A stretch of DNA of 64,000 nt, from positions 186,001-250,000 of the forward strand of contig VTPO01000001.1 of NCBI GenBank assembly GCA_008638205.1, given 5' to 3'. Origin of the DNA: Pelagibacteraceae bacterium. Lineage in GTDB: Bacteria > Pseudomonadota > Alphaproteobacteria > Pelagibacterales > Pelagibacteraceae. The translations under genes were made by a program, and so were the position numbers. This document shows, one piece after another, positions 40,223 through 44,343 of this stretch (position 1 is the first letter of the stretch; the number at the start of each line of letters is the position of its first letter). The notes under the pieces are model-generated. The model was not told where the DNA came from, searched no databases, and saw nothing but the letters and a program-made list of their open reading frames with translations.

Positions 40223-40792
40223 ATGTCAAAAGAATTAGATAATCAAGTATCAGAAAGCGTCTTTAATGATAAAATCTTCAATTTTTATCAAAAGAGAAAA
40301 TATTATATTATAGGTTTGGCTATTGTTGTAGTTTTAATACCTATTACCTTTCAAATTTTTTTATCTATAGATAAAAAGAATAATTCAAAAGAACTAGAAA
40401 AATATAGTGAAATAATTCTTACAACAGATAAAAAAAAACAAGAAGTTGAGCTTGAAAAATTATTACAATCTACTAACGAAACTGTCTCATTGTTAGCCCT
40501 TAACCAATTACTTGAAATTAACAAAGATTCAAAACAAAAATCAATTTCATTTATTGACCAGTTGTTAAATACCAATAAATTTTCTAAGAAAAATACAAAA
40601 TATTTAAAAATTAAAAAATCTTTATTGGTATTTGATACCGCTACTGAGGTGGAAATGTTAAATTTAATAGACTTAAAGAGCAAAGATTCTGCCTTTAGAA
40701 AAATGTCTTTTGAAATTATGTACGATTTTTATATTAGCAAAAAACAAAACTTAAAAGCCAATGACCTCAAGAGGTTAATTGATGAGAACTAG
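40223..40792 (+). CDS. YfgM-like tetratricopeptide membrane protein
   Basis: Residues 27-50 (YYIIGLAIVVVLIPITFQIFLS) form one transmembrane helix after a short cytoplasmic start, leaving about 140 residues outside with helical repeat character. E. coli YfgM has the same topology (periplasmic TPR domain, SecYEG-associated chaperone) and the same gene order, yfgM-bamB-der, as seen here. Sequence similarity is weak, so the name rests on topology and synteny. It overlaps bamB by 11 bp. Confidence 0.68.
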   Translation: MSKELDNQVSESVFNDKIFNFYQKRKYYIIGLAIVVVLIPITFQIFLSIDKKNNSKELEKYSEIILTTDKKKQEVELEKLLQSTNETVSLLALNQLLEINKDSKQKSISFIDQLLNTNKFSKKNTKYLKIKKSLLVFDTATEVEMLNLIDLKSKDSAFRKMSFEIMYDFYISKKQNLKANDLKRLIDEN

Positions 40793-42089
40793 TGTCATTT
40801 TATTTTTTTGTTTCTTTTTATTAAATTGTTCTAAAGAAGTTGAGCTGGGAATAGATATAGAACAGCTTAAAAATGACGGAGTAACTGTTTTAAAAAAAAT
40901 AAACAATTCAGAAAAATTGAATGAAGAAAGTACATTAATATCTAAAATTAATTTAAACAATCCTAGCAATTTCCAGAATTGGAGACATCCTAATTTTAAT
41001 TTTCAAAACCTAGTCCCACATCCAAAGTTTGAAGGAAATTTTTCTAACATTAAGAAAACTTATAAATTCAAAAAAGTAAAAAAAAACATTTACTTAAAAA
41101 ATATTATTAAAGCTAATAGCAAGATTGTTTATGTTGATGATTATAGTAATTTACACATTTTAGATCAGGATCTAAATTTGATAAATAAATTTCAAATTTA
41201 TAAAAAAAAACTATTTAAAAATTATTCTTTAAAGTTCTCTATAGCATCCAATGATAATTTTGTTTTTGTAGCAGATAATTTAGGAGGAGTATTAGCATAC
41301 GATATTGTTAATTTTAAATTGGCCTGGAGAATAGAGCTGGGAGTTCCTTTGTTATCCAACATGGTACTCTATAAAGAAAATCTTTTTATTACCAACTCAA
41401 ATGGAAAAATTTTCTCTCTGAATTCTATAGATGGTAAAGTTAACTGGAGCTATGAAACAGGCTCCTCTGGAACAAGCTCTCATAAAGCATACCAATTAGT
41501 TGTCGCTAACGATAAACTTTTATTTTCTAACGATTTTGCCAATATTTATTGCATAGATCTTAAAAAACAAAATTTATCGTGGAGAATTACCCTGGAACGT
41601 AAAAGCGATTATAGTGATGTATCTTTTTTAGAGCTATCTAATTTGGTTATAGAAAAAAATAACCTTTTTCTATCATCTAGTTTTGGCTCAGTTCTTAAGA
41701 TTGATATTGAGTCAGGAAAAATTATTTGGTCTAACAGTGGAAACTCCAACATTCGACCACTGATAACAAAAAGCCATATTATACTTGTTAACCAAGGAGG
41801 TGTTTTTAATGTTTTTAATAAAGAAAGTGGAAAAATGGTCTTCCAAAAAAATTTATTTGAAATTTTAAAATCTAATAATATTAAATTAAAACAAACAAAA
41901 GTTAGTAATTTATTTTCTGCATCTGGTGTCATTTATGTTTTTACAGATAATAAGTTTATTTTTCAAATTAATAGTCTCAATTTAGAATCCATTGTTTATT
42001 TAAAAGTTTCTAAAAGTCCTCAATCTAATCTCGTGTTTTCTGATGGATCTGCTTATTTTATATCGAGCAATAAAATTTATAAAAATTAA
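40782..42089 (+). CDS. bamB: Outer-membrane assembly lipoprotein BamB
   Basis: PQQ-type beta-propeller lipoprotein of the BAM complex, which inserts outer-membrane proteins. A lipobox follows the signal sequence (MRTSVILFFCFFLLNC, Cys at about residue 16). Propeller blades are visible as repeated GK/G-x-x-xW patterns, for example LAWRIELGVPLLSN, GKVNWSYETG and GKIIWSNSG. The ATG at 40782 is preferred to TTG 40779. It is followed by der with a TAATG overlap, matching the conserved bamB-der arrangement. Confidence 0.88.
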   Translation: MRTSVILFFCFFLLNCSKEVELGIDIEQLKNDGVTVLKKINNSEKLNEESTLISKINLNNPSNFQNWRHPNFNFQNLVPHPKFEGNFSNIKKTYKFKKVKKNIYLKNIIKANSKIVYVDDYSNLHILDQDLNLINKFQIYKKKLFKNYSLKFSIASNDNFVFVADNLGGVLAYDIVNFKLAWRIELGVPLLSNMVLYKENLFITNSNGKIFSLNSIDGKVNWSYETGSSGTSSHKAYQLVVANDKLLFSNDFANIYCIDLKKQNLSWRITLERKSDYSDVSFLELSNLVIEKNNLFLSSSFGSVLKIDIESGKIIWSNSGNSNIRPLITKSHIILVNQGGVFNVFNKESGKMVFQKNLFEILKSNNIKLKQTKVSNLFSASGVIYVFTDNKFIFQINSLNLESIVYLKVSKSPQSNLVFSDGSAYFISSNKIYKN

Positions 42090-42892
42090 TGACTATTAAT
42101 ATTTCAATCGTAGGAAAGCCCAATGTAGGAAAGTCGACTTTTTTTAACAAGATTTTTTCTAAAAATATATCAAAAGTTGCTGATGAGCCTGGAACAACCA
42201 AGGATGTGATTTCTGAGTCTTTTTTGTTTGGTAATGAAGAATTGGTATTTCACGATACTGGAGGACTAAAAAAAAAAGCTAAGTCTAAAGATGAAAATCA
42301 ATCCTATATTACTAAGGAATGCTTAACTGCTATTAATAATTCTTCTATCGTTATTTTTATGATGGATGCAAACGACAAGTTTACTAAAAATGACAAGCAA
42401 ATTTGCAGAATGATTTTAAATAAATTTAAAACATTAATTGTTATTATTAACAAAGCTGATTTAATTAAAGATGAAATCAAAACCAGAACAAAATACTTTA
42501 ACTATTACTTTGAAAATTTATTTTCAGACATTTTGATCAAGCCTCATTTTTTCTCTTCCATCATGGAAAAAAGCCCTGATGTGTTTCTTAGAAAGATTTG
42601 TAGCCTTGATCAATCTACTAAAATTATGATTAGTAACAATAAATTAAATACTTTTTTAGAAAAAACTAATAATTCTCATAGAGCTCCACAAAAAGGAAAT
42701 TTTAGACCCAAAATTAAATTCTTAAAACAAGTCAACTCTAGGCCTATTATTTTAAAAGCATTTGGAACTAGATTAAAAGGGGTCAATAAGGACTATAAAA
42801 ATTATTTTTTAAAACAATTTCTAAGTCATTTTAGCATTTACAATAAAGTAGTAATTATTAAGTTTGTAAATAACGAAAATCCCTTTAGCTAG
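42089..42892 (+). CDS. der: Shortened Der-like GTPase: one G domain plus KH domain
   Basis: Der (EngA) is an essential 50S assembly GTPase, normally about 440-490 residues with two G domains and a C-terminal KH domain. This gene encodes only 267 residues: one G domain (GKPNVGKST at 8-16, PGTTKD, DTGG, NKAD) and a KH-like tail starting at PKIKFLKQVNSRP (about 205) and ending NENPFS. The G domain resembles the second domain of Der (GLKKKAK after DTGG, ECLTAINNSSIVIFMMDA). bamB ends on its first base, so no room exists for a missing first domain and no frameshift remnant is seen. Confidence 0.85.
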   Translation: MTINISIVGKPNVGKSTFFNKIFSKNISKVADEPGTTKDVISESFLFGNEELVFHDTGGLKKKAKSKDENQSYITKECLTAINNSSIVIFMMDANDKFTKNDKQICRMILNKFKTLIVIINKADLIKDEIKTRTKYFNYYFENLFSDILIKPHFFSSIMEKSPDVFLRKICSLDQSTKIMISNNKLNTFLEKTNNSHRAPQKGNFRPKIKFLKQVNSRPIILKAFGTRLKGVNKDYKNYFLKQFLSHFSIYNKVVIIKFVNNENPFS

Positions 42893-42894
42893 AG

Positions 42895-44343
42895 TTATCC
42901 TGTAAAGTTACTGAGTAAAGATAATTGATTGTTTTTTTCAGTTTGGTTCTTAAAATCCTGAGGAATTACTGGATAGTCTCCGGTAAAACAATGATCTGTG
43001 AATTGTGGATTTTTATTATCTCTTTTTTCATGCCCTAGGGCGTTATAAACTCCATCTATACTTAAAAAAGATAACGTCTTAACACCAATAATTTTTCTCA
43101 TTTCTTCTATACTGTTATTCGCAGCTAACAATTCGGATACATTCGGCGTATCAATTCCATAATAATCAGGAAATTTAATTGGAGGACTTGAAATTTTCAT
43201 GTGTACCTCTTTTGCTCCCACCTCATACAACATCGAGACAATTTTTTTAGAAGTAGTTCCTCTAACAATAGAATCGTCCACTAAAATAATTCTTTTATTT
43301 TTGATTAATGCTCTATTTGGATTGTGTTTAAGTTTAACACCCAATTGTCTAATTTGTTGAGTTGGTTCAATAAACGTTCTTCCCACATAATGATTTCTTA
43401 TTATTCCCATATCAAATTGTATTTTAGACTCTTCAGAATATCCAATGGCAGCAGGATTGCCAGAATCTGGCACTGCAGATATCAAGTCAGCTTCTGTAGA
43501 AAATTCTTTAGCTAGTTGTTTGCCTAGGTTTTTTCTATACTCATAAACCCCTTTGCCTCCAACAATGCTGTCTGGTCTTGAAAAATAAATATACTCAAAA
43601 ATACATGGTCTGGGATTTTGTTTAGGAAATGGCTTGATGCTTTCAATACCGTCTTTGTTGATAATTACTATTTCACCGTTTTCAACCTCTCTTATAAATT
43701 CCGCTCCAATTATATCTAAGGCACAAGTTTCAGATGCAAAAATATAAGAATCACCAAGCTTTCCCAATACCAAAGGTCTGATACCATAAGGATCTCTAAT
43801 ACCAACAAGCTTTTTATTAGTTAGCATAACCATTGCGTAGCCACCCTGAATCTGGAAAATAGAATCGATAATTTTGTCGATGATTTTAGTCCTTCGTGAT
43901 TTTGCTATTAACTGAACAACTGTTTCCGTATCAGAGGTTGTTTGAAATATTGCTCCTTCTTTGACCATTTTTTCCCTAATATGTATGGCATTGGTAAGGT
44001 TTCCATTATGTGCAATGCTGATACCACCTAAATATAAATCTGCAAAGAAAGGCTGGATGTTTCTAACAATAGGAAGTCCTGTTGTTGAATAGCGATTATG
44101 CCCAATAGCTGCATTTCCAGGAAGTTGATCGATTATTTTTTTACTTGTAAAGTTGTCACCTACAAGGCCTCGTCTTTTAACTGAATGAAAATTTTTACCA
44201 TCAAAGGTGTTGATACCACAGGCCTCTTGCCCTCTGTGTTGTAATGCATGTAAACCTAACGCCGTAAGAGATGCTGCATCCTTGTGGTTATAAACACCAA
44301 AGACACCACACTCTTCTCTTAATCTATCGTCTAGCACAGGCAA
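42895..44343 (-). CDS. purF: Amidophosphoribosyltransferase
   Basis: First committed step of purine synthesis, transferring glutamine nitrogen to PRPP. An 11-residue propeptide (MPVLDDRLREE) precedes the nucleophile Cys12 (CGVFGVYNH). The Ntn glutaminase domain has GHNRYSTTG and HNGNLTN; the phosphoribosyl domain has ALIKNKRIILVDDSIVRGTTSK. The 482 residues are full length. It is 26 bp downstream of cvpA, the classic cvpA-purF pair. The tail converges on der with 2 bp between stops. Confidence 0.97.
   Translation of the reverse strand: MPVLDDRLREECGVFGVYNHKDAASLTALGLHALQHRGQEACGINTFDGKNFHSVKRRGLVGDNFTSKKIIDQLPGNAAIGHNRYSTTGLPIVRNIQPFFADLYLGGISIAHNGNLTNAIHIREKMVKEGAIFQTTSDTETVVQLIAKSRRTKIIDKIIDSIFQIQGGYAMVMLTNKKLVGIRDPYGIRPLVLGKLGDSYIFASETCALDIIGAEFIREVENGEIVIINKDGIESIKPFPKQNPRPCIFEYIYFSRPDSIVGGKGVYEYRKNLGKQLAKEFSTEADLISAVPDSGNPAAIGYSEESKIQFDMGIIRNHYVGRTFIEPTQQIRQLGVKLKHNPNRALIKNKRIILVDDSIVRGTTSKKIVSMLYEVGAKEVHMKISSPPIKFPDYYGIDTPNVSELLAANNSIEEMRKIIGVKTLSFLSIDGVYNALGHEKRDNKNPQFTDHCFTGDYPVIPQDFKNQTEKNNQLSLLSNFTG

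What the first reader, a model, noticed from the sequence alone, without database searches (positions are those of the whole stretch)
42089..42892. Der GTPase reduced to one G domain plus KH
Der normally has tandem G domains; this protein has a single domain resembling the second G domain and the KH domain, in 267 residues. The gene starts on the last base of bamB, so the first domain was not lost by a nearby frameshift. The DTGG in switch II is more like the first G domain, so a fusion of features is possible. A single-domain Der would change the nucleotide-dependent control of 50S assembly.
Basis: partly seen in the sequence, partly recalled or inferred. Interest (0 to 1): 0.65.

Follow-up and report, generated by a model that had tools for sequence, protein, structure and literature searches.

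The report
Single-domain Der GTPase in SAR11 bacteria
In SAR11 ocean and freshwater bacteria, a normally two-engined and essential ribosome-building enzyme (Der) has shrunk to one engine plus its RNA-gripping tail, and in the Pelagibacter branch it is gone altogether together with its cousin Era, so a factor assumed to be indispensable can be pared down in free-living cells.

Summary
Window 42089-42892 encodes an intact 267-aa protein with one G domain and a Der-type KH domain, starting on the last base of bamB. The genome (99.97% complete) has no full-length Der and no separate first G domain. It is not an assembly error: a closed genome of the same genus and other Pelagibacterales (SAR11) genomes carry the same short gene at the same bamB junction. 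A maximum-likelihood tree puts the domain with alphaproteobacterial GD2, as one clade spanning two SAR11 families; a GD1 hybrid is not supported. dN/dS is 0.02-0.12 (purifying selection). Elsewhere in Pseudomonadota the tandem form is nearly invariant (394 of 397 genomes over the family cut-off). Der-minus genomes form one clade; in two of its genera bamB abuts purF. Best reading: an ancient GD2-KH-only Der, probably still a 50S-assembly GTPase without GD1 control, lost with Era once in the Pelagibacter branch. Function was not tested experimentally.

The parts
42089..42892 (+). single-domain der gene (GD2 + KH), 267 aa plus stop
42101..42454 (+). G domain (Pfam MMR_HSR1, residues 5-122), orthologous to Der GD2
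   Evidence: tree
42113..42139 (+). P-loop/G1 GKPNVGKST (residues 9-17), with the K+-coordinating Asn12; the second K+-loop Asn20 lies five residues after Lys15
   Evidence: sequence; Asn roles from PMC3466195
42254..42265 (+). G3 DTGG (residues 56-59) followed by GD2-type LKKKAK
42449..42460 (+). G4 NKAD (residues 121-124)
42629..42862 (+). Der-type C-terminal KH-like domain (residues 181-258)
   Evidence: PF14714, 6e-12
40779..42089 (+). bamB; its stop TAA overlaps the der ATG (TAATG); a tight bamB-der junction is kept across both SAR11 families
42895..44343 (-). purF, convergent neighbour; directly abuts bamB in two der-minus genera

Best explanation
An ancestor of the Pelagibacterales lost the first G domain of Der, leaving a GD2-KH protein still coupled to bamB. 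It most likely remains a K+-stimulated GTPase that binds late 50S intermediates, GD2 in the P-site space and KH towards the peptidyl-transferase centre, and leaves on GTP hydrolysis, without the GD1 contact near the L1 stalk and its second nucleotide checkpoint. Later, in the ancestor of the Pelagibacter branch, this reduced Der and Era were both lost. Shown: architecture, GD2 orthology, single origin, purifying selection, clean loss. Inferred: 50S binding and the GTPase cycle.
For: GD2+KH only. In all 29 single-domain SAR11 Ders analysed the P-loop begins 10-26 residues after the upstream in-frame stop, so there is no upstream G domain. They form one clade (98/89) sister to alphaproteobacterial GD2 (98/92), apart from GD1, MnmE and Era. 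G1-G4 motifs and the two K+-loop asparagines are kept in the window protein. dN/dS 0.016-0.124 over 12 pairs, low like purF and mostly well below bamB. The tight bamB-der junction is kept in both families. Outside SAR11 the tandem form is the rule: 394/397 Pseudomonadota over the Der cut-off, the exceptions being G000, G014 and one Der-less genome. PurF tree: der-minus genomes are one clade, 100/100. Literature: isolated B. subtilis GD2-KH is a K+-stimulated GTPase and GMPPNP-bound GD2-KH prefers 50S (PMC3466195); GD1 near the L1 stalk, GD2 in the P site, KH to the PTC (PMC13278734).
Against: No biochemistry on the SAR11 protein. The literature states that both G domains are needed for ribosome binding in vitro and function in vivo (cited in PMC3466195; the same paper also reports that one functional domain sustains E. 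coli growth at high temperature). Full loss in most SAR11 shows the role is dispensable there. The AlphaFold model was too weak to use (mean pLDDT 52, 3 sequences).
Confidence: 0.8

Rival explanations
1. The single-domain Der has changed job: with GD1 gone it works at another step, perhaps in a module with Era on 30S or 70S precursors, which is why the two are present and absent together.
For: All 21 genomes with the Der KH domain also have Era; 132 of 154 have neither; only G044 has Era without Der. [quoted passage not shown]
Against: The Der-minus genomes form one clade, so the co-loss may be a single coincident event. Era binds 16S helix 45 (PMC10582724) and no physical link to Der is known to me.
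Confidence: 0.12
2. Split Der: the first G domain is encoded elsewhere and works in trans.
For: None found.
Against: The Der model finds no unassigned GD1 in the own genome; the best GD1-region hit is the genuine Era, above its own cut-off.
Confidence: 0.02
3. Hybrid domain from recombination between GD1 and GD2 of the old tandem gene.
For: The kept start at the bamB stop fits an intragenic deletion; residues 1-38 score neutral or slightly GD1-like in family f1.
Against: Residues 39-175 are GD2-like in the f1 proteins, f2 is GD2-like from residue 22, and some divergent genuine GD2s also score towards GD1 in residues 1-21, so the signal is uninformative. Tree support for GD2.
Confidence: 0.05
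4. Truncation by assembly error, frameshift or a decaying pseudogene.
For: Der-minus sister clade; faster protein evolution than PurF between genera.
Against: Same gene structure in closed and independent genomes and strong purifying selection.
Confidence: 0.01

Closest known systems
Der/EngA (YphC), TIGR03594, e.g. E. coli Der (3j8g) and B. subtilis YphC (2hjg)
   Same: GD2 and the C-terminal KH-like domain are orthologous; G motifs and K+-loop asparagines kept
   Different: the whole first G domain and linker are missing; bit score below the family's equivalog cut-off
Laboratory GD2-KH construct of B. subtilis EngA (PMC3466195)
   Same: same domain content; the construct is a K+-stimulated GTPase that binds nucleotides with near-native affinity
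   Different: an engineered fragment, whereas this is a natural full-length gene product under selection
Era (TIGR00436)
   Same: same G + KH layout and similar length
   Different: different clade; below the Era cut-off (71.8 against 116.25 bits); a true Era is also in the genome

Membership tests
Der/EngA | two tandem G domains | tested here: not met
   one G domain; TIGR03594 aligned over 176-431 of 432 only, 187 < 306.7 bits
Der/EngA | C-terminal KH-like domain PF14714 | tested here: met
   residues 181-258, 46.1 bits over cut-off 27.3
Der/EngA | G domain orthologous to Der GD2 | tested here: met
   ML tree 98/92 with GD2; GD2 beats GD1 in 908 of 957 pairwise comparisons
Der/EngA | K+-loop asparagines and hydrophobic residue in place of the catalytic Gln | tested here: met
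   Asn12, Asn20, DTGG-Leu60 (criteria from PMC3466195)
Der/EngA | 50S binding and essential role in 50S assembly | not testable with these tools
   needs biochemistry and genetics
Era | match to the Era model above cut-off | tested here: not met
   71.8 bits against 116.25; separate Era ORF at G000:C5
split Der | separate GD1 gene in the genome | tested here: not met

The most novel reading that the evidence does not exclude
SAR11 dismantled its ribosome-assembly GTPase set in order: EngB and Der's first G domain were gone early (order-wide), then the remaining Der and Era went together in the Pelagibacter branch, so some of the most abundant free-living heterotrophs assemble ribosomes without Der, Era or EngB, by a rewired route that keeps Obg.
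Probability: 0.6. Interest if true: 0.82.

Novelty: new variant of a known kind. Interest (0 to 1): 0.7.

Why it matters
Why Der needs two G domains is an open question; both are reported necessary in vivo, and Der is placed in minimal bacterial gene sets and reported in all Mollicutes (PMC3466195; PMC4014445). Here nature gives three states in related free-living cells: tandem (other Alphaproteobacteria), single and none. Comparing their ribosomes would show what GD1 does, what replaces Der and Era, and how small a ribosome-assembly kit can be. Nine searches of the held paper library turned up no report of this; most subscription papers are not covered.

Tried and rejected
Hybrid GD1/GD2: domain tree, motif comparison and segment-wise profile scores with divergent GD2 controls; not supported. 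Structure prediction: mean pLDDT 52 with only three admissible sequences; no fold search was made on it. Bharat et al. 2006 on both E. coli G domains was not held; it is cited through PMC3466195. YN00 dN/dS failed on saturated pairs; NG86 is given, and dS above about 1.5 should be read as saturated. Search for a remnant between bamB and purF in der-minus genomes: none, gaps of +1, +1 and -4 bases.

Full report
What is there. The ORF 42089-42892 (+) is intact, 267 aa, and begins on the last base of the bamB stop. Pfam finds one G domain (5-122) and the EngA-type KH domain (181-258). The Der equivalog model aligns only from position 176 to 431 of 432 and scores 187 bits, below its cut-off of 306.7. 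The top PDB hits are Der proteins, aligned best over GD2 and KH.

Genome check. The window lies in a 1.12 Mb, 99.97% complete genome. With P0001 and with the Der model, the only other hits are other GTPases: Era (above its own cut-off), and MnmE-, Obg-, IF2- and YchF-size ORFs (these named from ORF length and matched region, from general knowledge). There is no second Der and no free-standing GD1. The nearest named relatives are Pelagibacteraceae MAGs CP.31, M30B8 and CP.15; CP31 is placed in SAR11 subclade IIIa.3 by PMC10030771, so this is a SAR11 IIIa-type genome. Handle G010 has exactly the length published for the LD12 isolate LSUCC0530, 1,160,202 bp.

Not an artefact. The same short gene, opening at the end of bamB, is in the closed genome G005 (99%), in G001 and G004 (88%), in other genera of the family (44-51%) and in a second family (28-31%). 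In the 29 proteins examined the P-loop begins 10-26 residues from the upstream in-frame stop, leaving no room for another domain. dN/dS in twelve pairs is 0.016-0.124 by NG86, close to purF for close pairs and up to about three times higher for distant ones, and below bamB in most pairs (dS is saturated in the more distant pairs). The gene is under purifying selection.

Which domain. In a maximum-likelihood tree of 55 G domains, the SAR11 domains form one clade (98/89) that is sister to alphaproteobacterial GD2 (98/92); GD1 is a separate clade (100/98). GD2 scores above GD1 in 908 of 957 pairwise comparisons. Segment-wise profile scores favour GD2 beyond residue 39 in the family-f1 proteins and from residue 22 in family f2; the first 21 residues are uninformative, because some genuine divergent GD2s also lean towards GD1 there. 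A crossover inside the P-loop helix can be neither shown nor excluded.

How unusual. Of 387 alphaproteobacterial genomes 377 have the Der KH domain; the listed non-SAR11 ORFs are nearly all tandem length (440 aa or more), with a few short ones not followed up that may be cut by contig ends. Of 397 Pseudomonadota at least 97% complete, 394 exceed the Der cut-off; the exceptions are G000, G014 (both single-domain SAR11) and G332 (no Der).

The wider pattern. Of 154 Pelagibacterales genomes at least 90% complete, 21 have the Der KH domain and 22 have Era. The 21 are contained in the 22; G044 has Era only; 132 have neither, including closed genomes. EngB reached its cut-off in none of the 29 Pelagibacterales genomes tested, but in both genomes of family f27. 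In a PurF tree the der-minus genomes are one clade (100/100). In two der-minus genera bamB and purF abut, with gaps of +1, +1 and -4 bases and no der remnant; in genus g4 other genes lie beside purF. Because the losses map to one branch, the perfect match of Der and Era is one evolutionary observation, not 154.

How it probably works. Literature gives GD1 near the L1 stalk, GD2 in the P-site space and KH towards the peptidyl-transferase centre (PMC13278734). A GD2-KH fragment of B. subtilis EngA is a K+-stimulated GTPase with near-normal nucleotide affinity, and GMPPNP-bound GD2-KH prefers 50S (PMC3466195). The SAR11 protein keeps exactly that half, with the G1-G4 motifs and both K+-loop asparagines. 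The likeliest mechanism is a one-checkpoint 50S-assembly GTPase. Binding and catalysis are inferred. Reports disagree on whether one G domain suffices in E. coli.

Verdict. I call it a new variant of Der: it fails the tandem-domain criterion but is orthologous to the GD2-KH half.

Noticed in passing
L102-L104 (G397, G208, G465; family f27): Tandem-length Der (417-425 aa) that is strongly degenerate: GD1 P-loop GKVNEGKS, no recognisable NKxD in GD1, weak KH (E about 1e-5); G208 and G397 lack Era but have EngB. A second AT-rich lineage eroding Der differently.
   Followed up: partly
G332 (family f124; L105 holds its Era): A 1.2 Mb, 100% complete alphaproteobacterial genome with no Der but with an Era-type GTPase; an apparently independent der loss.
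   Followed up: partly
29 Pelagibacterales genomes: EngB (YihA/YsxC), often essential elsewhere, reached its cut-off in none of the 29 genomes.
   Followed up: partly
L048 (G045:C32:18223-19015): Der of an f2 genome split over two frames with internal stops; either a MAG frameshift or a decaying gene.
   Followed up: no
L023-L040 (family f2): In f2, bamB-der is followed by cvpA and the RND gene about 0.7 kb on, with no purF between, so purF entered or left this spot between the two families.
   Followed up: no
window 40779-42089: bamB evolves very fast (44% identity within the genus, dN/dS about 0.37) beside slowly evolving der and purF.
   Followed up: partly
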